A stretch of DNA of 64,000 nt from Fischerella sp. JS2 (GTDB lineage Bacteria; Cyanobacteriota; Cyanobacteriia; Cyanobacteriales; Nostocaceae), in the NCBI RefSeq assembly GCF_032393985.1, contig NZ_CP135918.1, forward strand, positions 5,953,724 to 6,017,723. Direction: 5' to 3'. Numbering within the stretch: position 1 is the first letter of the stretch; the number at the start of each line of letters is the position of its first letter. Positions 1,814 through 48,302 of this stretch are shown here, piece after piece. The notes under the pieces were generated by a model that was not told where the DNA came from, made no database searches, and saw only the letters and a list, made by a program, of their open reading frames with translations. The position numbers were made by a program, and so were the translations under genes.

Positions 1814-4648
1814 CTAAAACTGCACTGAAATTGAACCAATCACAGTAAAAGGCTCCCCTGGATAAATACCGCTGATTTTGCTGAAAGGCACACCAGTGAT
1901 GTGATTGACATCAAAAATATTCTTCAAGTTGAGAGCAAACCGCCAATTGTCTCGACGGTAAAAGATAGCTGCATTGGTGAGAAAGTAACTGTCTAGGTTA
2001 AAAGTGTTTTGCAAATCTCCTTTACGTTCGCCGACAAAATTAAATCCCACCCCAAAGCCTAAACCTTGCAAACTACCACTTTGTAACTCATAGGTCGTCC
2101 ACAAACTAGCGCTATTTCTGGGAACACCTGTAAGTGTATTGCCAACAATAGATTGATCGGTGTCATCTGTAACTTCAGCATCTGTGTATGCATAGGAGGC
2201 AATAATATTCCATCCTGGTAAAATTTGCCCGCTAATATCGAATTCAAATCCTCTACTTCGCTGTTCGCCTGTTGCCACTGAAAAACCTAACCCAGGAAAA
2301 TTCGGGTCTTCTGTAGCAACATTCGTTTTGGTAATGTCAAAATATGCCAAGCTGGCAAAAATTCTACCTTCTAGTAATTCAGTTTTAATTCCGATTTCAT
2401 AACCTCTACCTCGTTCCGGTTCGAGTAGCCCCCCATCAACACTGAAATTATCAACGTTAGGATTAAATGATTGGGAATAGCTAGCGTAAAGGGAAACTTC
2501 TTTAATCGGTTGATAAACAATTCCAATGCGCGGAGTCAAAGCATCATTGAATTGACTGGTGTCATCACCAGAATTAAAAAATGCTGGCTCATTTTGTACT
2601 TTTTGATTTACGGTTTCATAGCGCAAACCCGCTAGTAATTTGAAATTGTCGAAAAAGGCAATCTCATCTTGGAAATAAATGCCAAACCTATTTGTTGTAG
2701 ATTTACTATCGAAGAGTAAATCGTTTAGATCGGGTCTTGGAGAACTGTCGTAAACCGGATCGAAGACATTAATTGACACTGGGTTAGAGAAATTCGCTCT
2801 CGCATAACTAGTAGAGTTGTTTCGGTTTAAATCAACACCAAACAACAGAGTATGCTTCACCGAACCTGTAGTAAATTTACCAACTACATTTGTTTGTAGG
2901 GAATAGTCATCCGAATTAAAATCATCATAAGCGTAGACACGAGTGAGATCGCCAGTAGCCTCATCAAAGGCAATTGGAATCGTCAATCTCTCGCTAAAAA
3001 CACTACTTGTTGCATATCGAAATGCATTGCGTATTGTCCAGTTATCGTTAAAACGATGTTCTAAACTATATCCGGTATTGACGAAATTACGTTCAATATA
3101 ATCGTCTGGTTCATTGAGAACGCGATCGCGAGGCAGATCGATTACTTCGTCGCCAACGGCAACTAAACCAGTATCTTGTGGTCGTCTGCGGTATGAATAC
3201 TGCAAATCAACGGTTAGATTTGTGCGATCGCTGAACTTCCAAGTTAAAGCAGGTGCAAGAAAGAATTGCTCGAAATTCTGGTCAAAATCTCGAAAACCAT
3301 CACTATTTAGATACGCCAGATTCAGCCGATAAAACTCTTTTCCATTTGGACTCAACGGCCCAGAAATATCAATCCGGGGTCGAATCAAATTATAGTTGCC
3401 AAACTGTAACTCAGCCTCATAAAAAGGTTCTGACAACGGCTTTTTGGTAACAACATTGATTATCCCACCCGGCTGAATTTCTCCATACAGAACTGAAGCC
3501 GGGCCTTTGAGAACTTCAATACGCTCTATATTTGCTGTTTCTGGAACCTCTTGATAATTGTATTGCCTGAAGCCATCAATCAAGACAGGAGCATTATCAA
3601 AACCCCGGATAGTGTATCTTGCTTCCGAGCCAGTATCAAAACCGCCAGAAATAACATTGCTGACGTTGTTTAATGCCTCATCTCAACGAATCACTTGTTG
3701 ATCCTCAATCACCTTTTTAGGCACAACTTGAACTGATTGAGGAATATCGAAGATGCGAGTATCGGTTCTAGTACCAGTGGTAGCGTTGGGTGCGTTATAT
3801 CCATCTTCCTCGCCCGTCACCACTAGTTCAATTGGCTGATCTGTCTCAGCGGCTGGTTGTTCTGGTTGAGTTTCACCCTCTAGCGGTGGTGTTTCACCTT
3901 CTGATGGTTCTTGAGACGGAGGCGTTTGTGCTGTTTCTGGCTCTTGTTGTGGCTGTGCTTCAGGTGTTTGTGCTGTTCCTGGTTCCTGTGGAGAAGCAGT
4001 AGAAGCTGGTGCTGTTACAAAGCCAAAAATTAAACCCTCGTCACTGTCAAATAATTCGACTTGTGGCAAACCCACCTCACCTATTACCACCACCCGGATA
4101 GTATTCGCATCTTGGTTACTAACCGTGATTTCAGTAATTCCTGCAACTGGATTTTCCTGACGGAATGCATCACCCTTAGCTAACCTTAGTTGAGCATTGG
4201 GAATGTCAGCAATATATGTATTACCTTCGCTTTTCGGCGATACTTGTAACTTATCTCCTGAAGAAGTTTCTAAAGTTATCTCTACACCTTTATCAGTAGG
4301 ATTAACCCGGACACCAGTTATTTGTATAACTTCTGATGAACCTGCTTGACTAAGTGTAGACGGCTGCACCAACATTTGGGCATTGGTCAGAGGTTGGATT
4401 ATCTCACTCAGTTGCCGAATTTTTCTAATCGGTTCTACAGCCTGGTTTTTAGAAAGTAGCGGTAATGCTTGATTGGAACTCTCACCAGTTTCAGTATGTG
4501 AAAAAGAGGATTTTACATCTTTATCTTTATCTGTTATCTGCTCTCCTTGGGCAGGAGTTGCAATTAACATGACAACTGAGACTGTGAACAAAAAGCTGTG
4601 AACGAATTGCTCTGGTTTCATTTCTTTCCTCATACTCCATCGCATCAT
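1814..4648 (-). pseudogene. TonB-dependent siderophore receptor with AMIN domain, broken by in-frame TGA
   Basis: Outer-membrane ferric-siderophore receptor of cyanobacterial type, about 944 residues if the stop is ignored. Order: signal peptide (residues 12-35), AMIN domain (about 100-210, periplasmic), a Pro/Glu/Gln-rich linker (215-270), a TonB box-like IELVVTG, the plug (RIFDIPQSVQVVPKKVIEDQQ, later VLKGPASVLYGEIQPGG) and a C-terminal beta barrel ending in IGSISVQF. A TGA at 3683-3685 (codon 322) sits inside the plug between QQVIR and DEALNNVSNVISGG. Both halves are in the same frame and fit together without loss, so this is one nonsense substitution, not a frameshift. It could be a true pseudogene or a base-call error. 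The first half alone would be secreted without a barrel. It is followed by the MFS transporter. Confidence 0.85.
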
Positions 4649-5848
4649 TCGCGTTTGGTTAATGACACGACTTCAAATAATTGAAATTTATTAGCGTTAA
4701 CTTTGCAAGTTAAATAATTTTATTGCAAATAAGTTTTATAAACAAGCCAGATTTATTGAGAATACTTATTTATTTTCTGTCATAAGTTCATTGACAAGTA
4801 AGTATTTCAGTATTAATGTCTACAAAATAAGTTATTTTTAATACTTAAATAAATTAAAGTTAGTAAAAGATCCTTTAAATCAGTACTTTAAGAGTTTTGT
4901 ACTTAAATTTTTTGAACACTTTGCTTTTCTATTATGTCAGTCAAAGCAAATATTATAAAACGGTTATATTTTAGACACCAAATTTTATACTATAAGTAAA
5001 AAAATACACTAGAAATAATCTTATATTGATTTTTTATAAATACTCTATTGCTAAATACAACTATTTCCTATTAAAGTTAGGTGAAGGTTAATTGAAAATA
5101 ACTTGCAATATAAGTGTATAAATTTGTCTTTCTAAGCTTGTAATTGCTTGGTATCAGGCAATACTAAGACTTCTTTCAATTGAGGCATTAACAAATCATT
5201 GATACCTTATGAAGAGTCGAATGTATCACAGGCAGCCGCTATCGAAAGTTTATAGAGTGTCTTCCCAGAGTGTATCTTAAAGCTTGAGCCGTAATATGTG
5301 TCAACAAACAGAGAGCGCTCATAAAAAATCCCATAACTGTTCTTCTATCAAAACGCCAGTTGGGAATCAAGATGAAGCTAGAAACTCATCAGGATATATT
5401 GCTGATTCAAATCTGCAATGCAGTCAAGTTGACGATCGCCTATTAGATCGTAGAGTTTTGAGCGATCACAGCCACATCAAAATCAGAGAGTGCAACTATG
5501 TTATGTAAGTATAGAACTGCGAGGAAGAAGCTGGATTTGTTGAACGATGCGATCGCCAGAGCCTAAACTTGTAGTTCGCTTCTAGCTTTCGGTATTTGCA
5601 TAGTCAGCATTGGCTGAAAATAAATATTGGAACTATAGCCGTAGTCACATAGGTTAGGACATTTTGAAAGCGTGAATGTTAGGAATAGTAATACTTTTAC
5701 CTCCTGCCTCCTGCCTCCTGCTATAACTTCAGCAACTGGGTGAAGAATTCACTAATTTAAATAAATCGAAAGCGTGAAGAAAGCATTTTCACTGACAAGC
5801 AGTTGAAAGCAGCATTTCTCAAGCGTCTTTTGATTCTAAAGCTATAAA
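4649..5848. other. 1.2-kb intergenic region between divergent receptor and PKS genes
   Basis: No convincing gene. 4680-5150 is very AT-rich and should hold the promoters for the receptor (leftward) and possibly the PKS operon (rightward). I found no clear Fur box. At 5699-5722 there are three tandem CTCCTGC heptamers, a short tandem repeat type common in filamentous cyanobacteria. A 74-codon open frame at 5284-5508 has no recognisable protein character and is not called. Confidence 0.6.
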
Positions 5849-8800
5849 ATGATGTTTGAGAAAAGTGTACAATTCATTCAAGGTTGGTTAGTTTCGCAGC
5901 TGGCATCTCTACTGGAAACTACTCCCCAAAATATCGACCTTGAGAGTCGCTTTAGTGACTATGGACTTGATTCAGTTAGAGCAACTAATCTGATTGAAAA
6001 CTTAGCTACTAAGTTAGGGTGTCAGTTATCTCCTACTCTCATCTGGGAGTACCCCAATATTAGAACCTTGGCTAATTATCTTGCAGGAACTCCAAATCGC
6101 CAGCTAGTTAGCAATAACAATACCCGCAAATCTCAGAAATTAGCCACTGAACCAATTGCAATTATTGGTATTGCCTGCCGCTTTCCCCGCGTTCAAAACA
6201 CCGCCGCCTTTTGGCAATTGCTCAAAGATGAAGTAGATACCATCAGCAAGGTGCCTGCCGACCGTTGGCGCAAAGATGGTTTCTCCAATGACGAGAGTAC
6301 CCGTTGGGGTGGCTTTCTAGACGAAATCGACAAATTCGATCCCGATTTCTTTGGCATTTCTCCAAGAGAAGCTATTCAGATCGATCCTCAACAGCGTTTG
6401 ATGTTGAAACTATCTTGGGAAGCATTAGCAGATGCGGGCCTGCCAGTTGAAACCCACAGAGGAAGTCGTACCAGTGTTTTTGTAGGAGCAATGTGGGCTG
6501 ACTATGCAAATCTCATCAGACAAACAGGGTTAATTGCTCAACATACAACCACTGGTCAAGATTTAGGTATCATTGCCAATCGCATTTCTTATATTTTTGG
6601 TTTCCAAGGAGCAAGTCTAACGGTAAATACAGCTTGTTCATCCTCCTTAGTAGCTGTTCACTTAGCTTGTCAAAGTCTACGCTCAGGAGAATCTACCCTT
6701 GCACTGGGTGGGGGTGTCAACTTAACGATTGACCCTGATAGTACCGCAGTCATGTCCAAGTTTGGGGGTTTATCTGCTAAAGGTCGCTGTCAAACTTTTG
6801 ACGCTAATGCCGATGGTTACGTTAGAGGTGAAGGTGCAGGGATAGTTGTCTTAAAACCTCTTTCCTTGGCATTAACTGCGGGCGATCGCATTTATTGTGT
6901 GATTAGGGGTAGTGCAGTCAACAACGATGGTTTCAGTAATGGTTTGACTGCTCCCAATCCCAAAGCTCAAGAAGCTTTATTGCAAGATGCATACGAGCAA
7001 GCTGGTATTAACCCCAATCAGGTACATTATATTGAAGCCCACGGTACTGGGACAAAACTAGGAGATCCCATAGAAGCTAAAGCGCTGGGCGCAGTTTTGA
7101 GCAGCGATCGCCCCACAGATCGCCCGTTAAGTCTGGGTTCCGTCAAAACCAACATTGGACACCTCGAAGCCGCCGCCGGTATAGCTGGACTCATCAAAGT
7201 TGTTCTAGCCATTAAACACCGCCAAATTCCATCTAACCTTCATTTTCACCAACCCAATCCAGAAATTCCTTTTGACGAACTACATCTACAAGTACAAACC
7301 TCTTTAACTAGCTGGCCTTATCCTGAGGAGCCAGCTTTGGCAGGAGTAAGTTCCTTTGGTTTTGGCGGAACTAACTGCCATGTTGTAGTTCAAGAATTGC
7401 TCAATGTCTCATCGCCACATTCTCGTTTTCCCTTACTAGTTCCTCTAGCGGCAAATAGTGAAGAAAGACTTCAGTCTCTGTGCCAGGAATTAAAAGTTAA
7501 ATTACAAACTTCTGAATTGGGATTAAAGGAACTCATAGCTGGTCATCTACTTAATGAAAGTCACAAACTAGCTATGGTTGTTGATTCCCACATCACAGCC
7601 GCAGAATATCTAGAGAATTTTCTTCAAGGAAGAAATTGTACGGGATTGTACAAAAGTACTGAAATTCACGATCGCCCGATTGTGTTTGTGTTTTCGGGAC
7701 AAGGATCTCAATGGTTCGGCATGGGCAAGCAGTTACTAGAGAGCGAACCTGTATTTCGGGCGACTCTAGAACAGTGCGATCGCCTAATGCAGCAATATGT
7801 AGATTGGTCTTTGCTAGAAGAACTCACCGTCTGGTTTGAGGAAAAATCTCGGCTCAATGAAATTGATGTGATGTGGCCGATTCTGTTTGCCATTGAAGTT
7901 GCTTTAGCATCTTTATGGAAACACTGGGGTATTGAACCTGATGTTGTTGTCGGTCATAGTATAGGAGAAGTTGCAGCCGCTCATGTGGCTGGTATTCTCA
8001 ACTTGTCTGATGCAGTGCAGATTGTTTATCATCTCAGCCACAACGCCACCACTCAGAGCGGTTCTGGAGCAATGGCGCTTGTAGGACTTCCTTGGGAAAA
8101 AGCGAAAGCAGCCACCTTGGCTTACGAAGGCAGTGTTTACCCAGCTATTTACAACAGTCCTATTTCAACTGTAGTTTCAGGCAACCAAGCAGCACTAGAA
8201 ACATTATTAGCTCAACTGCGACGCGATAATATTTTTGGTCAGCTAGTCAAGACTAATATTGCCGTTCATACTCCACAAATGGAATCTCTGGAAGTTCCAT
8301 TGTTGGAAGTTCTTCAGGATATCAAACCTCAGCCAGCTGCTATTTTAATGATTTCAACATTGACTGGTGCGCCATTGGATGGACAGCAATTTGATGCATC
8401 TTACTGGTCAGGTTTGCTAAAAAAACCAGTACTGTTTTCTCAAGCCATAGCTTATTTGTTAGCAAAAGGCTTTAATACTTTTTTAGAGGTAACTCCGCAT
8501 CCGATTCTAGCGCCAGCAATTAAACAAACCTTGCAACATTACAGTCAAGAAGGCACGGTGCTGGAGTCTTTACGCAGGTCAAAAGACGACCGACACGTAA
8601 TATTACAGTCTCTAGGCCAGTTATATACTCTAGGAAAATCTATTCGTTGGCATAATGTTTACAATCAACATTTTGAGACACAGATAAGAGGTTTTCACAA
8701 TTCTGTACTCACAAGCCAGCCTCAAGTTCAACTTTTTCCCCTCTCAGCTCAAACTCCAGCAGCACTTAAAGAATTAAGTAAAAAGCTATATATTCAATTA

Positions 8801-8920
8801 ACTGAACATCAGATATCTCTTAACGACCTTTGTTACAGTACCAGCCGCCGTTGGAGCCATCTTAACTACAGATTAGCTATAGGCATTGAGTCAATCGAGG
8901 AGTTAAAACGGCGTTGCTGA
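5849..8920 (+). pseudogene. PKS1, N-terminal fragment: ACP-KS-AT plus start of a second AT linker (split by IS1)
   Basis: First gene of the assembly line. An N-terminal ACP (Ser42 in DYGLDSV) is followed by a ketosynthase (about 100-525, Cys263 in NTACSSS, then EAHGTGT and KTNIGHL) and an acyltransferase (about 610-900, GQGSQW, Ser704 in GHSIGE, His in IAVHTPQME). The usual HRSRLM motif of the AT reads HLSHNA, so the arginine that normally holds the extender carboxylate is His. After this AT comes a second KS-AT-type linker (FPLSAQTPAALKEL). An IS1-family element enters at 8910, giving a false C-terminus RRC. Removing the IS and one target copy joins it in frame to 9674-11046, restoring about 1,477 residues. 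An ACP at the front suggests a starter loaded by an enzyme outside the window. It is a broken gene as it stands. Confidence 0.88.
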
Positions 8921-9665
8921 ATAAAGGTATGTTTTAGGCAGGTAAGGGAACAGAACGATATTTGAGGTAGTGCAATAACAATCGAACAGAGTATCTCAGC
9001 ATTTCCTCAGTTTTGGAATAACATAAAGTTTTACGATGAAGACGAGCCAAATAATGTCTAAGCCTTGTGTTTTCATTTTCGACTCGTGTCATGTAGGTCT
9101 TACTCACAATTTGGTCACCATCAGGAACAAAACAAGGGTAAACAGGGTATCCATCTGTGACGTAAAAATAACTCTGCCAACACTGGACAATGTTCCATAA
9201 CTGTTGGAAAGTAGTCGAACTACGATCACCTAAAACCCAAGCAAGAATACCTTGAGTAAAGTGATTTACCGCCGTCCACAACCAGATTTTATTTTTTTTG
9301 AACCAATAAATGTTTCTAATTCATCTAGTTCTCCCACCTGCGGAATTTCCTTTGAATTTGGTGTATCCGCCAATTGTGTACCCACTCGTTTAACCCAATG
9401 AATAATGGTAGTATGATGAACGTTTTTCACCCTTTCAATTCCACGAAATCCCATACCATTGACGTACATTTTTAGGCATTCTTGTTTGATTTCATCCGAG
9501 TAGCCCCTGGGTGGTTTATAGACATCAATGAATTGACGACCACAATCACAGCAAATGTGATTCTGTTTACCTCTTTTCTTTCCATTCTTACGGTTATGAC
9601 AAGATCCACAGCGTGGACATTCCATGATTAATTGACCTCAATTCATACCGCTATTATGCAACGCC
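8910..9665 (-). mobile_element. IS1-family insertion sequence, copy A, in PKS1
   Basis: 756 bp. The ends are imperfect inverted repeats, GGCGTTGCTGAATA and, from the other end, GGCGTTGCATAATA. It is flanked by the exact 8-bp duplication GTTAAAAC at 8902-8909 and 9666-9673. The length, 8-bp duplication and two overlapping transposase frames are the standard IS1-family arrangement. It differs from copy B (35818-36573) at one base I could find (A at 9010 against G at the matching site), a silent change. Confidence 0.95.
8934..9625 (-). CDS. IS1-family transposase, two frames joined by -1 frameshift (copy A)
   Basis: The upstream frame (9266-9625, 119 residues) has a zinc-finger-like start (CPRCGSCHNRKNG, then CCDCGRQF) and a helix-turn-helix region (GIERVKNVHHTTIIHWVKRVG), like InsA. 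The downstream frame (8934-9281) supplies the catalytic half, like InsB: WVLGDRSS, YFYVTDGYPVY and VENENTRLRHYLARLHRKT, which carry the DDE-type acidic residues. The frames overlap at a run of eight A, where a -1 slip gives the continuous reading GSKKNKIWLWTAVNHF. The second frame has no ATG of its own, so the active transposase is expected as a frameshift fusion, as known for IS1. Both frames are undamaged, so the element may still be active. Confidence 0.9.
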
Positions 9666-9673
9666 GTTAAAAC

Positions 9674-11046: not shown

Positions 11047-11060
11047 AAGTAGAAAATTTT

Positions 11061-17070: not shown

Positions 17071-17071
17071 C

Positions 17072-32711: not shown

Positions 32712-32790
32712 TATAGAAATTTTATTTAATAACTAAAAGTGAATTTTTAAGACCACAGAAGAAAGCAAAAATATTTTGGATGAAAATAAC

Positions 32791-35818: not shown

Positions 35819-36573
35819 GCGTTGCTGAATAAAGGTATGTTTTAGGCAGGTAAGGGAACAGAACGATATTTGAGGTAGTGCAATAACAATCGAACAGAGT
35901 ATCTCAGCATTTCCTCGGTTTTGGAATAACATAAAGTTTTACGATGAAGACGAGCCAAATAATGTCTAAGCCTTGTGTTTTCATTTTCGACTCGTGTCAT
36001 GTAGGTCTTACTCACAATTTGGTCACCATCAGGAACAAAACAAGGGTAAACAGGGTATCCATCTGTGACGTAAAAATAACTCTGCCAACACTGGACAATG
36101 TTCCATAACTGTTGGAAAGTAGTCGAACTACGATCACCTAAAACCCAAGCAAGAATACCTTGAGTAAAGTGATTTACCGCCGTCCACAACCAGATTTTAT
36201 TTTTTTTGAACCAATAAATGTTTCTAATTCATCTAGTTCTCCCACCTGCGGAATTTCCTTTGAATTTGGTGTATCCGCCAATTGTGTACCCACTCGTTTA
36301 ACCCAATGAATAATGGTAGTATGATGAACGTTTTTCACCCTTTCAATTCCACGAAATCCCATACCATTGACGTACATTTTTAGGCATTCTTGTTTGATTT
36401 CATCCGAGTAGCCCCTGGGTGGTTTATAGACATCAATGAATTGACGACCACAATCACAGCAAATGTGATTCTGTTTACCTCTTTTCTTTCCATTCTTACG
36501 GTTATGACAAGATCCACAGCGTGGACATTCCATGATTAATTGACCTCAATTCATACCGCTATTATGCAACGCC
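35818..36573 (-). mobile_element. IS1-family insertion sequence, copy B, in PKS4
   Basis: 756 bp, same ends (GGCGTTGCTGAATA and inverted GGCGTTGCATAATA) and same orientation as copy A. It is flanked by the exact 8-bp duplication CTGAAATA at 35810-35817 and 36574-36581. Apart from one silent base it matches copy A wherever I compared them, which argues for recent transposition within this genome. Confidence 0.95.
35842..36533 (-). CDS. IS1-family transposase, two frames joined by -1 frameshift (copy B)
   Basis: The protein sequence is identical to that of copy A. The upstream InsA-like frame (36174-36533) has the CPRCGSC and CCDCGRQF cysteines and a helix-turn-helix. The downstream InsB-like frame (35842-36189) has YVTDGYPVY and VENENTRLRHY. 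The slip site is a run of eight A near 36206, where a -1 shift yields the full transposase. Both frames are open, so this copy could move itself and copy A. It runs opposite to the host PKS gene. Confidence 0.9.
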
Positions 36574-36581
36574 CTGAAATA

Positions 36582-38681: not shown

Positions 38682-41600
38682 ATGGACACGCAATATTCTA
38701 ATTTATCACCTATGAAAAAAGCCCTTTTAGAAAAATTGAAGGGAGGAAAATTTAAAGCTGAGTCTATTCCTCAATGCCAAAACTCAGAACCTGTACCTTT
38801 GTCTTTTTCTCAGCAAAGACTTTGGTTTATTGACCAACTTTATCATGGTAGTTCTTTTTACAATATTTCTAGCGCTTTACATTTAAAAGGATTTTTAAAT
38901 GTCACAGCACTTCAGCAAAGTTTCAACGAAATTATTCGCCGTCACGAAGCTTGGCGAACAAACTTTATCGCAGTAGATGAACAACCACTACAGGTAATAT
39001 CGTCACTAGGTCATGGCAATTTAAATATTCTTAATATTGAACATTTATTTGGAACAGATTGGGAAGTAGAAGTTACAAAAATAGCGAATGAGGAAGCTAA
39101 AAAAACCTTTGATTTAGCTAAAGATTCGTTAGTAGGAGCAACTTTGCTACGCTTGAACGAAGAAGAACACGTCTTGCTTTTGACCATACATCACATTGTT
39201 TGTGATGGTTGGTCTATGGGTGTATTTGCACAAGAGTTGGCAAAGTTGTACGCTGCTTTCTATGCGGGTAAACCTTCCCCTCTATCCGAACTTCCCATCC
39301 AGTATGCAGACTTTGCTATTTGGCAGCGCGATCGCCTGCAAGGAAAACTACTCGAAACTCAACTTAATTACTGGAAGCAACAATTAGCAGGTAAGCTACC
39401 AGTATTACAGTTGCCTACGGATCGTCCGCGTCCTGCTGTTGCCACTTTTAAAGGTGCAAAACAATATTTTACGTTCTCCAAACAATTGACTCAAGCACTT
39501 AATGAGTTCAGCCAGCAAGAAGGATGCACCTTATTTATGACTCTGCTGGCAGCGTTTAATACATTACTTTACCGCTACACAGACCAAGAAGATATCCTGG
39601 TAGGTTCTTCAATTGCAAATCGTAATCGAGCTGAATTAGAAGGGTTACTTGGTTTGTTCGTCAATAATTTGGTACTGCGTAACAATCTTAGTGGTAATCC
39701 CAGCTTTCGAGAACTTTTAAGTCGAGTACGGGAGGTAACTCTTGATGCTTATGCACATCAAGATTTGCCCTTCGAGAAGTTAGTAGAAGCATTGCAACCG
39801 GAACGCGACTTAAGCCGTAATCCCTTGTTTCAGGTAATGTTTATTCTACAAAATGCACCAACGCCTGTTAAAGAAGTTTCCGGTTTAAACTTACGTGCCT
39901 TAGAAATGGATCATGGTACATCTGAGTTTGACATTTCTGTGTCGATTTCCGAAGTTCAACAGGAATTAACTGGATTTTGGGAATACAATACAGATTTGTT
40001 TGATTCATTAACAATTAAAAGATTTATTGATAACTTCCAGACTTTACTAGAAAGCATTGTTAATAATCCCAATCAAAGTATTTCTGAATTACCACTACTA
40101 ACCGCTCAAGAGCAAAAACAATTATTAAAAAAGTGGAATCATACCCGTGCGGCTTATCCTGATGATGCATCTTTGCACCAGTTATTTGAGCAGCAAGTCG
40201 AGCGATCGCCCAATGCTTTGGCATTAATTGATCAGTCAGAACAGCTAACTTATCAACAACTCAATCAAAAGGTAAATCAGCTTGCCCATTATTTAATAAA
40301 TTTAGGAATTACGACTGAAATTGTCGGTATTTGTCTAGAACGCTCGATTGAGATGGTAGTGGCGATTCTAGCTATTTTCAAAGCTGGCGGTGCTTACCTA
40401 CCTCTCGATCCTAATTATCCGTTTGAACGTCTTCAGTTCATGCTTGCTGATTCCCAAGTTTCATTGGTAATCAGTAATACATCATTAATTAATCGTTTAG
40501 AACAATTGAAGAAGGCAGAAGGCAGAGGGCAGAGGGCAGAAGAAACAAGTCAGAATGGGATTCAGACCCCTCCTGAATTGGAGCCACTGAACAAGAGTTC
40601 AGTGAGGGTCTTAAACCCAAGTTCGCTACGGTCATGGGCAGAGGAAAGGAACCAGAATTCCCTTCTGCCTTCTGCCTCCTGCCCTCTGCCTTTCCCGATA
40701 ACAGTGATCGCCCTTGATACTGAGTGGGATACTATTCACAAAGAGAGTCAAGAAAATCCCGTCAGCAAATCTTGTGGGAACGATATTGCTTATGTCATTT
40801 ACACCTCTGGTTCCACCGGAACTCCTAAAGGTGTTCTCGGTACGCATCGAGGTACAGTTAATGGCTTACATTGGTTGTGGAAAACCTATCCTTTTGCAAG
40901 CGACGAAATTTGTTGTCAAAAAACTGCTATTAGTTTTATAGACTCGGTATGGGAAATTTTTGCCCCTTTATTACAGGGGATTCCTACCTTTATTATTCCT
41001 GATGCGATCGCTAAAGATCCTCAACTTTTCTTAGAAACTCTCTATCGTCACAAAGTTTCGCGCTTGGTACTTGTTCCCTCGTTGCTGCGGATACTCTTAG
41101 ATTCTTATAGTCATCTCACTCAAAATTTGTCCCATCTCCGACTTTGGATTTCCAGTGGAGAAGCCCTTGCTGTTAATTTAGTGCAAAATTTTCAAAAGTT
41201 GCTACCAAATGCAAAACTAATTAACCTTTACGGTTCCTCTGAAGTTTCTGCTAACGTAACTTTTTACGATACAAATTTATTAACTGAACAATCTACAACC
41301 GTTCCCATTGGTTATCCCATAGATAATACACAAGTATATGTCTTAGATCGTTATTGGCAACTTGTTTCCATTGGCGTAGTTGGAGAATTGTATATTGGTG
41401 GAGATGGATTGGCAAAGGGTTATTTGCATCGTCCAGAACTAACTAGCAAACGGTTTATTGATAACCCTTTTGTTCCAGGAACTAAGCTTTACAAAACTGG
41501 CGACTTAGTGCGCTATCTCAATAATGGTCAGTTAGAATATTTAGGTCGCTACGATGACCAAATTAAAATTCGTGGTTTTCGAGTAGAGTTGGGAGAAATT

Positions 41601-42959
41601 ACACTGGCGATTACTCAACACCCATCTGTGCAAGATGCTGTTGTCATATCTCGTAAAGATGCTCAAGACGAGCAATATTTGGTTGCTTATATAGTCACTA
41701 AGCAAGAAAATGTAATTCCACAAATACTGCAAAACTTGCAACAAAAGTTGCCGATTTTTATGATTCCGTCTGCTTTTATGGTAATAGATGCAATACAGCT
41801 AACACCGAATGGAAAAGTAGACAAAAACTCGCTACCAACTGATGATATCATTCGTTCCAATTCTACTAAGTCCTTCATTGCTCCTCGGAATTTCACAGAA
41901 TTAGCCTTGGAGAAAATTTGGACAAATCTCCTCAATATTAGTCCCATAGGAGTAACCGATAACTTTTTTGATTTAGGCGGTCATTCTTTTTTAGCTGTGC
42001 GCTTAATGGCTAAAATTTATGAGCGTTTTGGACACAACCTACCCTTATCTACTCTTTTTGAAAATACAACAATTGAAAAATTAGCCAAGATTGTTAGTCA
42101 GCCAGTTAGTTTTGGTTCGGGTTCCCCTTTAGTAGCAATTCAGTCTTCTGGCTTTTTACGTCCTTTCTTCTGCGTCCATGCAGCCGGAGGAGATGTCAAT
42201 AATTACCCCATATTGGCAAAAAAACTGGGTAAAGAACAACCATTTTATGCTTTAGAACAGACTCCCGAACAACTGGATTTTGCAGTTATTTCAGTAGAAG
42301 CTACAGCAACTAACTACCTCAAAGAAATTCGTAATGTTCAGCCAGAAGGTCCGTATCTTTTAGGAGGTTGGTGTTACGGTGGTGTAATTGCCTTTGAAAT
42401 AGCACAACAACTACAAAAGCAAGGTGAAACTGTTGATTTGCTTGTGGTCATTGACGCTATATTACCAGAAATAGTTATTCAACCGACAAAAGACGATGAT
42501 GCTAAATTCTTACTTCGTCTTGCTGAGTCTGTGAAAAGCTGGTTTAATGTTGATTTTTCTGTTTCTTACGAAGAATTGAGAAATTTGCCAGTAGATGAGC
42601 AATTTCATCTGTTATTTAAAAAAGCAAATCTCGAATTGAGTGATACAGAAATGGAACAATATTTGCGTGGCTTTAAACTTTTTAAAGCTCACATTCAAGC
42701 TATGCGAAACTATATTCCGCAAGTTTATCCTCACGAGATTACTTTATTTAGAGCTAGCGAAATAATCACTCACGATTTTGAAAGTTCAGAATTTTCTACT
42801 AATGACCCACTATTAGGTTGGGGTAAATGTTCTAGCCAACCCATCAAAATAATTGAAGTTCCAGGCAATCATTTCTCTATGTTTGTCGATCCCCATGTCC
42901 AAGAGCTAGCAAATAAATTAAAGATTTGTCTTGCTCATGCTCAAAAAGTTTTAATGTAA
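38682..42959 (+). CDS. NRPS4: C-A-PCP-TE termination module, beta-Ala-like code
   Basis: 1,425 residues, intact. Order: N-terminal helix (LSPMKKALLEKLK), condensation domain (45-455, HHIVCDGW), adenylation domain (about 505-1065: YTSGSTGTPKG, NLYGSSEVSAN, YKTGDLVRY, NGKVDKNSLP), PCP (about 1095-1165, FFDLGGHSFLAVRL) and thioesterase (1180-1420). The pocket reads I-D-W-V-I-S-L-A-N, close to NRPS3 and again without Asp235, so a second beta-Ala or similar beta/omega-amino acid is likely. The thioesterase nucleophile motif is GGWCYGG, with Cys1231 where Ser is usual; VIDA and VPGNHFSMF supply the other triad members. About 63 residues (610-672) of the A domain come from a folded intergenic repeat. 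This is the last module, followed 29 bp later by the P450 genes. Confidence 0.92.
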   Translation: MDTQYSNLSPMKKALLEKLKGGKFKAESIPQCQNSEPVPLSFSQQRLWFIDQLYHGSSFYNISSALHLKGFLNVTALQQSFNEIIRRHEAWRTNFIAVDEQPLQVISSLGHGNLNILNIEHLFGTDWEVEVTKIANEEAKKTFDLAKDSLVGATLLRLNEEEHVLLLTIHHIVCDGWSMGVFAQELAKLYAAFYAGKPSPLSELPIQYADFAIWQRDRLQGKLLETQLNYWKQQLAGKLPVLQLPTDRPRPAVATFKGAKQYFTFSKQLTQALNEFSQQEGCTLFMTLLAAFNTLLYRYTDQEDILVGSSIANRNRAELEGLLGLFVNNLVLRNNLSGNPSFRELLSRVREVTLDAYAHQDLPFEKLVEALQPERDLSRNPLFQVMFILQNAPTPVKEVSGLNLRALEMDHGTSEFDISVSISEVQQELTGFWEYNTDLFDSLTIKRFIDNFQTLLESIVNNPNQSISELPLLTAQEQKQLLKKWNHTRAAYPDDASLHQLFEQQVERSPNALALIDQSEQLTYQQLNQKVNQLAHYLINLGITTEIVGICLERSIEMVVAILAIFKAGGAYLPLDPNYPFERLQFMLADSQVSLVISNTSLINRLEQLKKAEGRGQRAEETSQNGIQTPPELEPLNKSSVRVLNPSSLRSWAEERNQNSLLPSASCPLPFPITVIALDTEWDTIHKESQENPVSKSCGNDIAYVIYTSGSTGTPKGVLGTHRGTVNGLHWLWKTYPFASDEICCQKTAISFIDSVWEIFAPLLQGIPTFIIPDAIAKDPQLFLETLYRHKVSRLVLVPSLLRILLDSYSHLTQNLSHLRLWISSGEALAVNLVQNFQKLLPNAKLINLYGSSEVSANVTFYDTNLLTEQSTTVPIGYPIDNTQVYVLDRYWQLVSIGVVGELYIGGDGLAKGYLHRPELTSKRFIDNPFVPGTKLYKTGDLVRYLNNGQLEYLGRYDDQIKIRGFRVELGEITLAITQHPSVQDAVVISRKDAQDEQYLVAYIVTKQENVIPQILQNLQQKLPIFMIPSAFMVIDAIQLTPNGKVDKNSLPTDDIIRSNSTKSFIAPRNFTELALEKIWTNLLNISPIGVTDNFFDLGGHSFLAVRLMAKIYERFGHNLPLSTLFENTTIEKLAKIVSQPVSFGSGSPLVAIQSSGFLRPFFCVHAAGGDVNNYPILAKKLGKEQPFYALEQTPEQLDFAVISVEATATNYLKEIRNVQPEGPYLLGGWCYGGVIAFEIAQQLQKQGETVDLLVVIDAILPEIVIQPTKDDDAKFLLRLAESVKSWFNVDFSVSYEELRNLPVDEQFHLLFKKANLELSDTEMEQYLRGFKLFKAHIQAMRNYIPQVYPHEITLFRASEIITHDFESSEFSTNDPLLGWGKCSSQPIKIIEVPGNHFSMFVDPHVQELANKLKICLAHAQKVLM
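40510..40697 (+). repeat. Folded intergenic repeat inserted in frame in the NRPS4 adenylation domain
   Basis: About 188 bp that start with GAAGGCAGAAGGCAGAGGGC units and end with CCTTCTGCCTTCTGCCTCCT units in inverse orientation. The core contains GGGATTCAGACCC, an inner stem ACTGAA/TTCAGT and GGGTCTTAAACCC. The core matches the intergenic copies at 12160 and 61023. It keeps the reading frame and adds the segment from about KKAEGRGQRAEE to CPLPFP between LINRLEQL and ITVIALDTEWD. Confidence 0.85.
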
Positions 42960-42988
42960 ATAAATTCTTAATTAGGTTAGTACAAATA

Positions 42989-43423
42989 ATGAAAATACCT
43001 GAACTCAAGAAAATTCCTCTTTGGTCTGACTATAAAATCACAAAAGATCCTCTTAATTATCTTGATAAAATAGCTAAAAACTATGGGGACATTTTTACCA
43101 TATTTTTTGGTTCTACACCTATTGTCTTCGTTAGCAACCCACAGGGAATTAAGCAGATTTTTAGCAATACAAAAGATATTACAGCTCCTGGCGAACTGAA
43201 CCAAGATATGGCTTTGATCACCGGAAAGCAAGGATTACTTCAACTTGATGGAGCGCGCCACAAACATCGACGCAAGCTGATCGTGCCAGCTTTTCACGGT
43301 GCTAGGATGCAAGCATACGGACAGCAGATTTGTGAGATGACTGAGAAAGTCATGAATCAGCTTGCTATTGGTCAACCCTTCTTATACCAATTCAAAAAAT
43401 GTTTGCGACAGATAAGGCATTGA
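42989..43423 (+). pseudogene. Cytochrome P450 (CYP110-like) no. 1, N-terminal fragment
   Basis: 132 authentic residues from the ATG at 42989 (MKIPELKKIPLWSDYKITKDP), followed by 13 false codons read into an IS630-type element. The fragment covers the membrane-proximal and substrate-entry part (NYGDIFTIFFGSTPIVFVSNPQG) and the C-helix motif HKHRRKLIVPAFHG. It lacks the heme-binding Cys. Removing the element and one TTA copy restores GQPFLAYPTIEAITL and a protein of about 458 residues. The gene is a tandem paralogue of the intact P450 at 45576. It follows the last NRPS by 29 bp, so it would act as a tailoring oxidase of the pathway product or an intermediate. Confidence 0.87.
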
Positions 43424-44529
43424 GGATGAAGTCATAACCAGTCAAAGAAGCAGCAATTTGAGGAGTGAGGAGAGCTAGGAGTTGAGCAACCTTGGTTTGC
43501 AGATGCTCCAGGTGATCAAATAGCTCCCATTTCAAGTCTTGCTTGAGATATTCCCAAACGCGCTCTATGGGATTCAGTTCAGGAGAATGAGCAGGCTGGA
43601 ACAAAAGAACAATATTCTCTGGAATTTGTAAACGTTTAGCTTTATGAAATAAGCCGTTATCAACTTGGAGAATGTTAAGTGATTTGGGATAACAGGCAGC
43701 GAACTCGTTCAAAAATTGTTGGTAGCATTCGGTATCAACATGAGAAAACTGCCAAAATAAACTTTCCCCAGTAAGTGGTTCAACTGCTCCATATAGCCAG
43801 AACGCTTTAAATTGCCACTGCCAATCACCAATAGGCTTAACTCCGGGAAGAGTAATTTTACGTCCTTCAATGGTTTTGAGTCCAAATCGACTCTCATCTT
43901 GTACAAAATAACGAATATTTTCGTACTGGGGCAAGATAATGGCACTGTATTGAGCAATTAATTGCAAGTCATCACCGAGTTTTTTTTAAAAGACTCTAGT
44001 TTTTCTTCGTCCTGTTTTCGGTTACGCGGACGTGGGACTTTCAGCTTGGCTTTGAGCCTGTAACGTGCCAGATGATGTACAGTTGCGTACTCAGCTTGCA
44101 CACCCAAGGTTTTTTCTAACCAATGTTGTATTTGTGTGTACCGTTGAAACCCACCTTCTGGTTGTTCGAGTTGTTTTTTCAAACTCGATACAGCCCAATC
44201 TGGTATTGCTCTTTTTCGACCTGAACTCGTTCCAAATTCAACAACCGCCTCAATTCCTCCTTCTCGATAATCTGCCAACCATCGATGTACTGTAGCTCGA
44301 TGTTTTCCCAAGATTTTAGCAATCTCACTTACACTCATTTCTTGCCCTTTAATCAGATATAGGGCTTGTATACGTTCTTTGCTCCGAGACTGTTTTTGAT
44401 GTCTGAGCAACTTCTCTAGTTCCTCGACACTATCAACTATCTCGATCTGTGTTACCCCTACCATCACATACCCTGAATGCTACTTCTGTCTATTTTTACC
44501 ATCTGTCGCATTCTTTTTTCAAATTGGTA
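43385..44529 (-). mobile_element. IS630-family insertion sequence in P450 no. 1
   Basis: 1,145 bp with terminal inverted repeats beginning TACCAATT. The left end continues CAAAAAATGTTTGCGACAG; the right end, read inward, continues TGAAAAAAGAATGCGACAG. It is flanked by TTA on both sides (43382-43384, 44530-44532), which contains the TA target expected for IS630/Tc1-type elements; whether the duplication is TA or TTA cannot be told here. A 126-bp relative with the same ends lies at 54022-54147. Confidence 0.9.
43392..44467 (-). CDS. IS630-family transposase, two overlapping frames
   Basis: The first frame (43958-44467) is a helix-turn-helix DNA-binding half (SVSEIAKILGKHRATVHRWLADYREGG, then a second winged helix with YTQIQHWLEKTLG). 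The second (43392-43967) is the DDE catalytic half (FVQDESRFGL, ILQVDNGLFHKA, HSPELNPIERVWEYLK). The acidic residues of the IS630 pattern are visible; DNG stands where DNA is more usual. The frames overlap at a run of eight A (TTTTAAAAAAAACTC), where a -1 slip gives KKLGDDLQLIAQY and joins the two halves. The second frame has only a TTG at its start. Either programmed frameshifting or a one-base mutation is possible; the slippery run favours frameshifting. Confidence 0.85.
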
Positions 44530-44532
44530 TTA

Positions 44533-45513
44533 GCTTATCCAACGATCGAAGCTATTACATTGCAGATAAGCATAGAAGTTGTGTTGGGTTTACGCGAGGG
44601 AGAGCGTTACGAACGACTCAAGCAATTACTTCCTGCCATATTTCAGCATATGCGATCGCCAATGATGCAAGTTGGCTTTGCTGTTCCGTTTGTGTTACGA
44701 GACTTAGGGCTTTGGAGTCCGTGGGGATACCTTCTACAGCTAAAACAGGAAATTTACCAACTGCTTTACGCCGAAGTTCAAGAACGCCGCGAACAAGCAG
44801 ACTCTTCTCGCACTGATATTCTATCCGAACTCATATTTGCCCGCGATGAAACAGGCGAACTCATGGCAGATGAAGAAGTGCGCGATTTGTTGCTTTCCCC
44901 ACTGTTAGCTGCTCAGGATGCTTCAGCTGTGGCGATCGCTTGGTTGTTGTACTGGACTCATAGTTTACCAGAAGTCTGCGAACAATTGCTAAGAGAACTT
45001 GACAGTCTTGGTGAGTCCCCCAATCCGACGAACGTAGTTCAACTCCCCTACCTCAATGCTGTTTGTAATGAAGCTTTGCGGATTTATCCAACTCAATTAT
45101 TCACATTTCCCCGGAGAGTAGAATCATCAACTGAGGTAATGGGCTATGAGTTGAGTCCGGGGACAATACTCATGGGCTGTATTTATCTACTCCACCAAAA
45201 CAAGGATTTATACGTACAACCACAGCAATTTAAACCAGAGCGTTTTCTGGAGCGGCAATACTCTGCCTATGAATTTATGCCCTTTGGTGGTGGCACTCGT
45301 AGCTGTATCGGAGCGGCGTTGGCTGTATTTGAAATGAAACTAGTATTGACAACTATTCTTTCACGCTATCAGTTAGCGCTAGTCAACAGACGATCAGAGC
45401 AAGCAAATTTTGACGGTCTAATGTGCTACCCAGCCAGTAGCATCAAGATGGTGATGCGTGAAATAAATCAACGCCAAAGTCAGCCGCAACATTTTGTTTC
45501 TGGCTCTGTTTAG
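44533..45513 (+). pseudogene. Cytochrome P450 (CYP110-like) no. 1, C-terminal fragment
   Basis: This continues the P450 after the IS630-type element, from AYPTIEAITLQISIEVVLGL. It has the I-helix (LLAAQDASAVAIAWLLYW), the ExxR motif (NEALRIYP), the PERF motif (FKPERFLERQY) and the heme-binding loop FMPFGGGTRSCIGAALA. The I-helix reads AAQDAS where CYP110-type P450s usually have AGHETT; the oxygen-activating Thr is missing, as in the neighbour. It could not fold into an active P450 by itself. About 70-80% similar by eye to the intact P450 that follows 62 bp later, so one gene probably arose by duplication of the other. Confidence 0.87.
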
Positions 45514-45575
45514 GAAAATCATACAACGGCTCTCAAATCAAAAATTAGTATAAAGAACTACTCAATATAAATACG

Positions 45576-46949
45576 ATGAAACTACCCCAAAGCCCAAAGA
45601 TTCCTAGCTGGTTGCTGAGAATGCAATTTGCAGCCGATCCCCTTGGTTGTATGGATAATTTTCACAAGCGCTATGGTGACATTTTCACGATTATGGCGGA
45701 TTCTACACTGATAGTATATGTTAGCAGTCCGCAGGGAATGAAGCAGATTTTTACCAGTACAACGGAGATTATAGCCTCTGGAGAATTGAACCAAGATGCG
45801 GCTCCATTGGTGGGAAACAACGGATTACTTCTGTTGGATGGTTTACGCCACAGACATCGGCGCAAACTACTGATGCCTGCTTTTCACGGTACTCAGATAC
45901 GAACCTACGGAGAGCGAATTTGTGAGCTAACAGAAAAAGTCATGGGGCAGTTGCCAGTTGGCAAACCTTTCTTGGCTTACCCAACTATGCAAAAGATTAC
46001 TCTAGAGGTAATCTTAGACACTTTATTTGGCTTACGTGAGGGAGAGCGTTACGAAAAACTCAGACAAGTACTTTCTACTTTAATGAATTATGCCAGGTCT
46101 GCTTTTGTTGGCATATCCTTATCTTTTCCATTTTTGCAAAAAGATTTAGGTAGATGGAGTCCGTGGGGTTACTTTCTTTACCTCTGGCAACAATTTGACG
46201 AGCTGCTTTACGCCGAAATTAGCGATCGCCGCCAACAACCAAATTCGTCTGGTATCGATGTTCTCTCCGAGTTAATATTTGCCCGTAATGAAACAGGCGA
46301 GTTGATGACAAATGAAGAAATACGAGATTTGTTTCCTTCATTATTATTTGGTGGTAGAGATGCTTCAGCTACTGCAATTACTTGGTCATTGTATTGGATT
46401 CATCGTCTTCCAGCAGTTCGCGATCACTTGCTAGAAGAAATCGCCAGCCTTGGTGGCTCAACAAATCCAATGAGGATTGTCGAACTCCCTTACCTCAATG
46501 CTCTTTGTAATGAAGTTTTACGGATTTATCCAACTCAAGTGGTAACCTTTCCCAGGATGGTAGAATCACCCGTAGAGGTGATGGGCTATGAATTAAGTCC
46601 AGGAACAATCATCATTGGCTGTATTTATTTAGCGCATCAGCATAAAGATTTATATCCGCAACCACAGCAATTTTTGCCAGAGCGTTTTTTGAAACGACAA
46701 TACTCTCCCTATGAATTTCTACCCTTTGGTGGTGGTGCTCGTCGTTGCCCTGGCGAAGCTTTAGCTCTATTTGAAATGAAACTAGTATTGACAACTATCC
46801 TTTCACGATATCAGTTAGCACTTAGCAAGAAACAACCAGAGCGGCCTCAGGCGCGAGGTGCTAATTTTCCTCCCGCTAGTGGTTTGAAGATGATGATGAT
46901 GGGGACTATTCAACATCAGGGACAGCAACAACAAACAGTTAATTGCTAA
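45576..46949 (+). CDS. Cytochrome P450 (CYP110-like) no. 2, intact
   Basis: 457 residues. Visible motifs: C-helix HRHRRKLLMPAFHG, I-helix LLFGGRDASATAITWSLYW, ExxR in NEVLRIYP, FLPERFLKRQYSPYEFLPFGGGARRCPGEALALFEMK with the heme-ligand Cys near residue 392. It is soluble or only weakly membrane-bound by appearance and needs an external ferredoxin-type electron donor. Position at the end of the PKS-NRPS operon suggests hydroxylation or epoxidation of the product. The I-helix acid/alcohol pair is changed (RDAS instead of HETT), so oxygen activation may rely on the following Ser or on substrate. CYP110 is the common cyanobacterial family; exact family assignment needs alignment. It is the last gene of the cluster before the integrase. 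Confidence 0.9.
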   Translation: MKLPQSPKIPSWLLRMQFAADPLGCMDNFHKRYGDIFTIMADSTLIVYVSSPQGMKQIFTSTTEIIASGELNQDAAPLVGNNGLLLLDGLRHRHRRKLLMPAFHGTQIRTYGERICELTEKVMGQLPVGKPFLAYPTMQKITLEVILDTLFGLREGERYEKLRQVLSTLMNYARSAFVGISLSFPFLQKDLGRWSPWGYFLYLWQQFDELLYAEISDRRQQPNSSGIDVLSELIFARNETGELMTNEEIRDLFPSLLFGGRDASATAITWSLYWIHRLPAVRDHLLEEIASLGGSTNPMRIVELPYLNALCNEVLRIYPTQVVTFPRMVESPVEVMGYELSPGTIIIGCIYLAHQHKDLYPQPQQFLPERFLKRQYSPYEFLPFGGGARRCPGEALALFEMKLVLTTILSRYQLALSKKQPERPQARGANFPPASGLKMMMMGTIQHQGQQQQTVNC

Positions 46950-47121
46950 CTCAATTGAACGTGGTTTCGACGTTTTTGTGCTTTGATTTCAAAATTTTCT
47001 TATTTTAAAGATGTAAGCCGATAGGGAATGTGAAGAATAAAGGCGATCGCTCATCTATTGGCAATTCATGTATTTATACCAGCTTAATGAGCAATCAGAA
47101 ACTTCTAATCAAACAGCTTTC

Positions 47122-48302
47122 TCAAAAATCTGGCACAACAATCTCTCTACTTTGTCCTGCATAGTGTCGATAAATAACTTCCGACGAATTACCCACTAAC
47201 TTAGCTACGTCTTTCACATCCATCTTATTGTCCAACGCCAGCGTAATAAAGGTATGTCGCGTTTGATAAAGCTTGCAATATTCAATCCCATTAAGCTTTG
47301 CTAGAATCGATTTCCAACCTCGGTTAGTCAAATTGTGAATATCAATCCATCCTCCTTCGGGTGAAGGAAATATCTTTGCATCAACACAGACAGTATTGGC
47401 TTTGATCGATTTTAGTAGTGTAGCCAGACGAATATTGATGGGAAAGGTTCGTTTCTTCTGAGTTTTCAAGCCTTTCTTGCAGGTTAGTCCAGATTCAGAA
47501 ATCACTACAGCTTGTTCAAACCGGATAGAACTGAAGTCTTTAGAAATGTGTTTCCATTGCAAACCAACAGCTTCAGATGGTCTACAGCCTGTCATGAAAA
47601 GAAATTCAATGAATGGGGCATAGTGTCTGTAGTAGCGGTTATTTTTGAATGCTTCAATTATTCTGTCACGTTCATCCTGGCTGAAGGGATTTATATCACT
47701 GTCTTCCTTATCTCCCTTGGGAATTTTTATGTCAGTTGCCATATTCTCATATGGATTTTCTTTAATTAACTGAGATTTACCGCCCAATCACAACAAGCTG
47801 AAAGTTGTGTCAGAATTCGTTTGGCTGTATTCGGGGTTTTATTTGCAATTAACCAGTCTCGAATTGCTACTGCACTATCCAAGGTTTTGATTGGCAGATG
47901 AAAATTGATGCAGCGAAAGACTTTTGTAAAATCTTTCGCTAGAGTACTGGGCGATAAACCAGGGCGCTTAAAGTCGGTGTACTTCTCCCACAACTCCACC
48001 AGAGATGGTTCGGCTTCAACAACTGGTGTAATTTTTGGGGTAAAAGTTGGGGTAACGGTACTCAGCAACAACTCTGGTTTATACTTGGCTAGAGTTGTGT
48101 CAAAATTACCAGAGAGAATATCCAACTCAATTTGCCTAGCCTTCATTTCCGCCAACTTGCGATTAGCTGGCGTATCTGTAAAACCTGTCGAAAGATAATG
48201 ACGTTTTCCGGTATAGCTAAAAACGAGTTGCAGGCGTTCGTTCGAGTTTTTAATCTGAACAGTACCTTTAGAAGATTTACCTCCAGAGGGTTGAGAGTTC
48301 AT
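47122..48302 (-). pseudogene. Tyrosine-type site-specific integrase, frameshifted
   Basis: Start ATG at 48302, preceded by a good ribosome site (AGGAG). The first frame (to 47766) holds the N-terminal arm-binding part and the SAM-like core-binding domain (SLVELWEKYTDFKRPGLSPSTLAKDF). The second (47122-47787) holds the catalytic domain: Arg in TGCRPSEAVGLQW, LYQTRHTFITLALD, and the Tyr nucleophile in SEVIYRHYAG. The junction reads CDWAV then KSQLIKENPYENM; one missing A in a run of A at about 47781 explains it. The total length is one base short of a multiple of three. The gene reads away from the 3' end of tRNA-Phe, the usual place for an island integrase. A single base error in the assembly is the alternative. 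Confidence 0.85.

What the first reader, a model, noticed from the sequence alone, without database searches (positions are those of the whole stretch)
1814..48302. A 40-kb PKS-NRPS locus with seven independent lesions, all on one side of tRNA-Phe
Seen: TGA in the receptor (3683), IS1 in PKS1 (8910), TAG in NRPS1 (25012), TAG in NRPS2 (26448), IS1 in PKS4 (35818), IS630-type element in a P450 (43385), and a one-base loss in the integrase (about 47781). To the right of tRNA-Phe (48.6-64 kb) no gene is broken. Inference: the island and its product are no longer under selection in this strain, and the damage is recent, since every gene can be rebuilt in frame.
Basis: partly seen in the sequence, partly recalled or inferred. 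Interest (0 to 1): 0.75.

Follow-up and report, generated by a model that had tools for sequence, protein, structure and literature searches.

The report
Recently broken PKS-NRPS metallophore-like locus
In this filamentous cyanobacterium a large gene cluster that probably made a metal-scavenging compound has been broken in several places, receptor gene included, apparently quite recently; a related second cluster elsewhere in the same genome may have made it dispensable.

Summary
Open homologues exist for six of the seven broken genes (five in Nostoc sp. CHAB 5844, the integrase in a same-genus genome); PKS1 has no close homologue. An eighth defect was missed: the second AT domain of PKS1 lacks about 87 residues.

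The broken pieces that could be measured have dN/dS 0.12-0.17 (one receptor piece 0.27) against 0.13-0.18 in unbroken genes, and no excess changes where an outgroup existed, so the damage is recent. Both IS families recently spread genome-wide, but the locus exceeds background (IS 3 vs 0.46 expected; with stops 6 vs 1.44; post hoc).

'All on one side of tRNA-Phe' is no separate clue: tRNA-Phe is a junction between core DNA (91-92% identical in two same-genus genomes) and an integration hotspot. No far att repeat was found, so the 'island' has no shown left edge. A second related cluster, syntenic in both relatives, suggests redundancy. Amber read-through was tested and is not supported. Ordinary biology, well documented.

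The parts
442..1839 (-). MFS transporter (AmpG / RhtX-FptX-like), open frame
   Evidence: Pfam MFS_1; NCBIfam AmpG and RhtX/FptX below their cut-offs; homologue 62% beside the cluster in Nostoc sp. CHAB 5844
1814..4648 (-). TonB-dependent siderophore-type receptor with AMIN domain, split by an in-frame TGA at 3683-3685
   Evidence: TIGR01783 above cut-off; open 891-aa homologue
5849..11046 (+). PKS1: ACP-KS-AT, then linker, a shortened second AT and ACP; interrupted by the IS1-type element
8910..9665 (-). IS1-type element, 756 bp, 8-bp target duplication
   Evidence: 40 near-identical copies scored in the genome
11061..12107 (+). O-methyltransferase, open frame
12340..17070 (+). PKS2: KS-AT-KR-ACP, open frame
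17072..21112 (+). PKS3: KS-AT-DH-ACP, open frame
21109..25719 (+). NRPS1: docking-C-A(N-MT)-PCP, split by TAG at 25012-25014
   Evidence: open 1533-aa homologue, 77/72%
25716..29180 (+). NRPS2: docking-C-A-PCP, split by TAG at 26448-26450
   Evidence: open 1598-aa homologue, 64/56%
29232..32711 (+). NRPS3: C-A-PCP, open frame
32776..34434 (+). PanP-type pyridoxal-dependent aspartate 1-decarboxylase (beta-alanine supply), open frame
   Evidence: TIGR03799 615.9 bits, cut-off 606.1
34667..38538 (+). PKS4: KS-AT-carrier domain, interrupted by the IS1-type element
   Evidence: open 1025-aa homologue, 81/75%
35818..36573 (-). IS1-type element, 756 bp, 8-bp target duplication
38682..42959 (+). NRPS4: C-A-PCP-TE, open frame
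42926..45513 (+). Cytochrome P450 interrupted by the IS630-type element
   Evidence: open 459-aa homologue, 69%
43387..44527 (-). IS630-type element, two overlapping transposase frames, flanked by TA
   Evidence: 18 full-length copies in the genome, this one included
45576..46949 (+). Second cytochrome P450, open frame
47122..48308 (-). Tyrosine integrase with Arm-DNA-bind_2 domain, in two frames overlapping at 47766-47787
   Evidence: open 384-aa homologue at the same tRNA in a same-genus genome
48503..48575 (-). tRNA-Phe(GAA), junction between core and variable DNA

Best explanation
This is a hybrid PKS-NRPS biosynthetic cluster, most likely for a metallophore with a beta-alanine-derived unit, lying in the variable region next to a tRNA-Phe integration site of a Nostocaceae cyanobacterium. 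It was functional until recently and is now being lost: two recently spread IS families, nonsense changes and a frameshift have broken seven genes, and nothing has removed these hits. Why selection lapsed is inferred: the genome keeps a larger, related cluster with its own receptor and decarboxylase that is conserved in the genus, so this one was probably redundant. Shown: the lesions, their excess over background, low dN/dS, open homologues, the second cluster. Inferred: metallophore function, redundancy as the cause, absence of product.
For: Lesions exact. Homologues open across the break for six of seven broken genes. dN/dS against CHAB 5844: seven broken pieces 0.12-0.17 with the receptor N-part at 0.27, five unbroken genes 0.13-0.18. 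Relative-rate counts, window-only/CHAB-only, six outgroups each: PKS4 5' piece 20-28/20-24, PKS4 3' piece 24-29/30-45, NRPS1 3' piece 2-4/4-10. KS Cys/His/His in four KS domains, AT serines and carrier serines kept. IS copies identical or nearly so genome-wide. 2 of 7 gene-interrupting IS1 copies among 30 examined lie in this 0.7% of the genome. Receptor and MFS homologues also flank the CHAB 5844 cluster. Second cluster at 2.249-2.319 Mb: decarboxylase 75%, PKS4-like 76%, NRPS4-like 71% (over about half), receptor 45%, syntenic at 92-97% nt in the parts of both same-genus genomes that were fetched.
Against: No gene for a known chelating group was seen in the locus, so metallophore function rests mainly on the receptor. 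No outgroup was available for the receptor or the NRPS1 main piece; NRPS2, PKS1, the 5' P450 piece and the integrase were not measured for dN/dS. The second cluster itself shows about seven frame breaks in three tandem PKS genes, its PKS4-like gene among them; they lie within 99%-identical repeats, so assembly error is likely, but if they are real the redundancy argument weakens. The excess of in-frame stops alone is not significant (P 0.076). For the four point lesions, sequencing errors would look the same.
Confidence: 0.78

Rival explanations
1. Some lesions are sequence or assembly errors and the locus is less damaged than it looks.
For: The same genome sequence has about seven frame breaks in three tandem PKS genes at 2.284-2.298 Mb, within 99%-identical repeats; the G002 draft breaks on both sides of that stretch and a G001 contig ends at its right side. 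Four of the seven lesions here are small changes.
Against: 600-bp stretches round the four point lesions are unique in the 1.7 Mb of this genome compared (other matches at most 79% identical over 91 bp, or 66% over 447 bp); the three insertions have proper target duplications; two IS1 hits in different unique contexts are hard to make by misassembly.
Confidence: 0.12
2. Culture-line decay: the wild population has an intact locus and the lesions arose in long laboratory maintenance during an IS burst. (Not exclusive with the best explanation.)
For: IS copies nearly identical genome-wide; no excess substitutions in the broken pieces that could be tested.
Against: Nothing here dates the hits that finely; one IS630 copy is itself split by an IS1 copy, so the two movements were successive at that place.
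Confidence: 0.2
3. A social-cheater loss: synthesis lost while uptake of the neighbours' siderophore continues.
For: MFS gene open; another receptor gene, 45% identical, is elsewhere in the genome.
Against: The cluster's own receptor is broken too, which the cheater model does not predict.
Confidence: 0.08
4. The stops are read through, at least under translational stress, by an amber-reading tRNA or through the tRNA array, so NRPS1 and NRPS2 are still made.
For: Both NRPS stops are TAG; ARAGORN finds a tRNA-like gene with anticodon CTA and a 21-gene tRNA array; in Anabaena 7120, deleting the repressor of such an operon raised activity from lacZ with start, frameshift and nonsense changes (PMC10272220, passages and section 11 read).
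Against: The CTA gene resembles one sequence in one genome that has CTG there, and by eye has lost pairs in its stems; TAG is not enriched among in-frame stop candidates, 7 of 37 against 215 of 770 terminal stops; read-through cannot pass the three insertions.
Confidence: 0.02

Closest known systems
Hybrid NRPS-PKS metallophore clusters of cyanobacteria (lusichelin, fatuamide A, anachelin, the unnamed Anabaena 7120 siderophore cluster)
   Same: Hybrid PKS-NRPS line with, in lusichelin, an MFS and a TonB-dependent receptor in the cluster (PMC12210259, passages; PMC6562677, passages; PMC11877528, passages)
   Different: Here a PanP-type decarboxylase and two P450s; neither word occurs in the fatuamide or lusichelin main text; no salicylate synthase or other chelator gene was seen here; the cluster is broken. 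No sequence comparison with these clusters was made.
Cluster of Nostoc sp. CHAB 5844 (NZ_JAIVFW010000003.1)
   Same: Receptor, MFS, NRPS1, NRPS2, NRPS3, decarboxylase, PKS4, NRPS4 and two P450s, 55-81% identical
   Different: The broken genes among these are open there; nothing closer than 40% to PKS1 in its genome; the upstream half of the assembly line differs
Inactive cyanobactin cluster of Microcystis aeruginosa NIES-843
   Same: A silent cluster whose active counterparts live in other strains (PMC3428304, abstract start in search listing)
   Different: Peptides cut from precursor proteins, not PKS-NRPS; what broke it was not read
IS-driven pseudogenes in an obligate cyanobacterial plant symbiont
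   Same: IS spread with pseudogene formation (PMC4369082, title and abstract start in search listing)
   Different: Obligate symbiont with reductive evolution; here one locus of a 7.0-Mb genome

Membership tests
Decaying (pseudogenised) biosynthetic gene cluster | Several genes disrupted whose homologues are open elsewhere | tested here: met
   six of seven broken genes; PKS1 has no close homologue
Decaying (pseudogenised) biosynthetic gene cluster | Damage above genome background | tested here: met
   IS plus stops 6 against 1.44 expected, P 0.0036, post hoc; stops alone P 0.076
Decaying (pseudogenised) biosynthetic gene cluster | No product | not testable with these tools
   needs LC-MS and proteomics
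Siderophore/metallophore cluster | Cognate TonB-dependent receptor in the cluster | tested here: met
   TIGR01783 393.6 bits, cut-off 223.5; also beside the CHAB 5844 cluster
Siderophore/metallophore cluster | Genes for a known chelating group | tested here: not met
   none seen in the Pfam and NCBIfam scans of locus genes (NCBIfam was given 9 proteins only); A-domain substrates were not predicted. Hence called metallophore-like only
tRNA-linked integrative island | Integrase next to the tRNA 3' end | tested here: met
   frameshifted
tRNA-linked integrative island | Direct repeat of the tRNA 3' end at the far edge | tested here: not met
   none found in the genome at E 10; apart from a 75% match at another tRNA the best was 18 nt, 3.4 Mb away. 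A repeat shorter than that would be missed
tRNA-linked integrative island | Site used by other elements in relatives | tested here: met
   G001 has a full tRNA-Phe and a 39-nt copy of the tRNA end about 12 kb away that is no full tRNA; G002 has an open integrase beside tRNA-Phe
IS1 family | Terminal inverted repeats, 8-9-bp target duplication, two overlapping frames | tested here: met
   (25 of 30 copies with an exact duplication); family definition and name recalled, no IS database searched
IS630 family | DDE transposase, TA target | tested here: met
   PF13358 DDE_3, TA flanks; family definition and name recalled

The most novel reading that the evidence does not exclude
The locus is not simply dead: in translational stress the tRNA array and a CTA-anticodon tRNA lower fidelity enough to read through the TAG/TGA stops, so broken secondary-metabolism genes act as a conditional reserve.
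Probability: 0.02. Interest if true: 0.8.

Novelty: new member of a known kind. Interest (0 to 1): 0.3.

Why it matters
Broken clusters are usually written off as silent. This one seems caught early, with its own receptor lost too and with a related cluster conserved in the genus, so it offers a natural test of whether redundancy rather than cheating drives loss of metallophore pathways. It also warns that genome mining could score this 40-kb locus as a promising cluster although six of its genes and the neighbouring integrase are broken.

Tried and rejected
Amber suppression: a CTA-anticodon tRNA-like gene was found but looks decayed, and TAG is not enriched; most of the matches to it in 43 of 217 family genomes are 83% matches over the same 59 bases as this genome's own tRNA at 6122283, and three relatives checked there carry tRNA-Asn(GTT). 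A programmed frameshift in the integrase was considered; by eye no slippery run is seen at the break, and the G002 homologue is in one frame. An empty-site comparison on the left failed: the G001 sequence beyond its repeat maps to two other places of this genome, and 120 kb to the left shares no stretch over 150 bp with the G001 and G002 contigs fetched. O-methyltransferase relatives in G139, G164 and G114 are not beside this cluster. dN/dS of the 3' P450 piece (0.98) came from a frame slip of mine; the corrected value is 0.167, and its outgroup row is void. In the relative-rate test one row for the unbroken NRPS3 (L004, 195/46) was out of line, probably because L004 is no outgroup; at most six outgroups per piece were printed. 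The candidate stop TGA at 2261006 looks like an ordinary gene boundary, so the background of 34 is an upper bound. Two of the 16 background IS ends (684688, 3297209) are not among the full-length copies; keeping them is conservative. NRPS1 lacks the usual C-domain HHxxxDG motif, but so does its CHAB 5844 homologue, and the TE has GWCYG in both, so neither counts as damage. The organism was not identified; a guess from memory (Calothrix PCC 7507) was not confirmed and nothing rests on it.
Full report
What the window is. The window lies in a 7.02-Mb single-contig genome whose relatives and gene content are those of Nostocaceae cyanobacteria (the name is an inference). From 442 to 48575 it holds an MFS transporter, a TonB-dependent receptor, four PKS genes, an O-methyltransferase, four NRPS genes, a PanP-type aspartate decarboxylase, two P450s, an integrase and tRNA-Phe. 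To the right lie a zinc-type ABC uptake set, an ArsR-type regulator, a porin and other genes.

The lesions. Each of the seven was found at the stated place. Three are in-frame stops at 3683 (receptor, minus strand), 25012 (NRPS1) and 26448 (NRPS2). Two are 756-bp IS1-type elements of one kind at 8910-9665 and 35818-36573, each with its own 8-bp duplication. One is an IS630-type element at 43387-44527 between two TA. The integrase is in two frames overlapping at 47766-47787. One more defect was missed: the second AT domain of PKS1 lacks about 87 residues compared with the other ATs of the locus, and with them the stretch that should carry the catalytic histidine (the place of that histidine is recalled). 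Its age is unknown, because no close homologue of PKS1 was found in 388 sampled genomes of the order (best 52%).

Are these really breaks? In Nostoc sp. CHAB 5844 the receptor (891 aa), NRPS1 (1533), NRPS2 (1598), PKS4 (1025) and the P450 (459) are single open frames to which the two pieces here align side by side. The integrase is one 384-aa frame beside tRNA-Phe in the same-genus genome G002. The pieces were searched apart.

How special is the locus? The IS1 element has 40 near-identical copies scored (70 candidates, 40 scored) and the IS630 element 18 full-length copies plus one split by an IS1 copy, so both families spread recently genome-wide. Of 30 IS1 copies examined (of the 40), 7 interrupt a coding frame by a coding-score test, and 2 of these 7 are here. 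In 80 stretches of 20 kb plus the window (1.664 Mb), IS ends found by exact pattern number 16 outside and 3 inside the 46.5-kb locus (expected 0.46, P 0.012); in-frame stop candidates number 34 outside and 3 inside (expected at most 0.98, P 0.076; an upper bound, since adjacent genes in one frame are counted); together P 0.0036. The comparison is post hoc, and 240 kb of the sample flank the window while 80 kb hold the second cluster.

How old is the damage? Against CHAB 5844 the broken pieces have dN/dS 0.122 (NRPS1 5'), 0.136 (NRPS1 3'), 0.129 and 0.155 (PKS4), 0.167 (P450 3'), 0.132 and 0.270 (receptor C and N parts); the five unbroken genes measured have 0.133-0.177. Synonymous distances are near 1, so this only says that most of the history was under purifying selection. 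Counts of changes unique to the window against those unique to CHAB 5844 show no excess in PKS4 or the NRPS1 3' piece; the receptor and the NRPS1 main piece had no outgroup. The active-site residues of four KS domains, the AT and carrier serines, the C-domain motif of NRPS2-4, the P450 cysteines and the decarboxylase lysine are present; the two odd motifs seen, in NRPS1's C domain and in the TE, are shared by CHAB 5844. The damage is therefore probably recent.

The tRNA-Phe side. From 48449 (G002) or 48178 (G001) to about 53960 the window matches both same-genus genomes at 91-92%, and the match ends close to the tRNA. G001 has its full tRNA-Phe and, about 12 kb away, a 39-nt exact copy of the tRNA 3' end that is no full tRNA; G002 has an open integrase beside its tRNA-Phe and a further remnant more similar to this one. 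tRNA-Phe is thus an integration hotspot and the right edge of a variable region. In the window's genome no far copy of the tRNA end was found, 120 kb to the left shares nothing over 150 bp with the relatives' contigs fetched, and the G001 sequence beyond its repeat maps to two distant places; the left edge stays open. That no broken gene was seen on the right is what core DNA would show.

Why it could be lost. At 2.249-2.319 Mb the genome has a larger related cluster with its own decarboxylase (75%), PKS4-like gene (76%), NRPS4-like gene (71% over 748 residues), P450 (61-65%) and receptor (45%, one open frame of 899 aa), syntenic at 92-97% nucleotide identity in the parts of both same-genus genomes that were fetched. 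The locus here looks like a second pathway of similar kind in a variable region. Redundancy is an inference. A complication: three tandem PKS genes of that cluster, the PKS4-like one among them, show about seven frame breaks at 2.284-2.298 Mb, all within 99%-identical repeats; the G002 draft breaks on both sides of that stretch and a G001 contig ends at its right side. Assembly error is the simpler reading. The four point lesions of the window lie in DNA unique in the 1.7 Mb compared.

What it made. The receptor (TIGR01783 above cut-off) and the same receptor and MFS beside the CHAB 5844 cluster point to a metallophore; the decarboxylase to beta-alanine. No chelating-group gene was recognised. 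In 34 loci with a relative of the decarboxylase, 32 have NRPS or PKS matches within the flanks held and only CHAB 5844 has the whole NRPS3-decarboxylase-PKS4-NRPS4-P450-P450 order at high identity; L030 has a looser version.

Read-through. Because both NRPS stops are TAG, the genome was checked for suppressor tRNAs: 73 tRNA matches were listed and the odd or weak ones looked at in four stretches, not every tRNA. A CTA-anticodon tRNA-like gene exists at 3691623-3691694 and a tRNA array at 5769.7-5773.3 kb. The former aligns at 90% to a sequence of genome G221 with CTG in that place, which ARAGORN does not call a tRNA; by eye it has lost stem pairs and the GG of the D loop. TAG is not enriched among in-frame stops, and three genes hold insertions that no tRNA can pass. 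The idea is kept only as the most novel reading.

Literature. Ten paper searches were answered (one search failed). Papers seen: passages of PMC10272220 with its section 11, and passages of PMC11877528, PMC12210259 and PMC6562677; the others in listings only.

Noticed in passing
G000:C1:5769741-5773315 (L133:14845-18506): A chromosomal array of 21 ARAGORN tRNA genes, like the stress-induced trn operon of Anabaena 7120 (PMC10272220, passages).
   Followed up: partly
G000:C1:3691623-3691694 (L135:1623-1694): A tRNA-like gene with amber-reading anticodon CTA, near a frame that looks by eye like a group II intron reverse transcriptase (recalled, not searched); a similar sequence in G221 has CTG.
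   Followed up: partly
G000:C1:2284000-2298500 (within L161): Three tandem PKS genes with about seven frame breaks within 99%-identical repeats; assembly error or decay.
   Followed up: partly
G000:C1:1431296-1433190: An IS630-type copy split by an IS1-type copy, which orders the two transposition events there.
   Followed up: no
window 9685-11046: Second AT of PKS1 lacks about 87 residues in frame; two ATs in a row in one PKS is unusual.
   Followed up: partly
G010:C1 (1964803, 1984451, 2001497, 2099893, 2276463): Genome G010 carries several short matches (81-91%) to the tRNA-Phe 3' end besides the tRNA region itself, perhaps stacked integrations.
   Followed up: no
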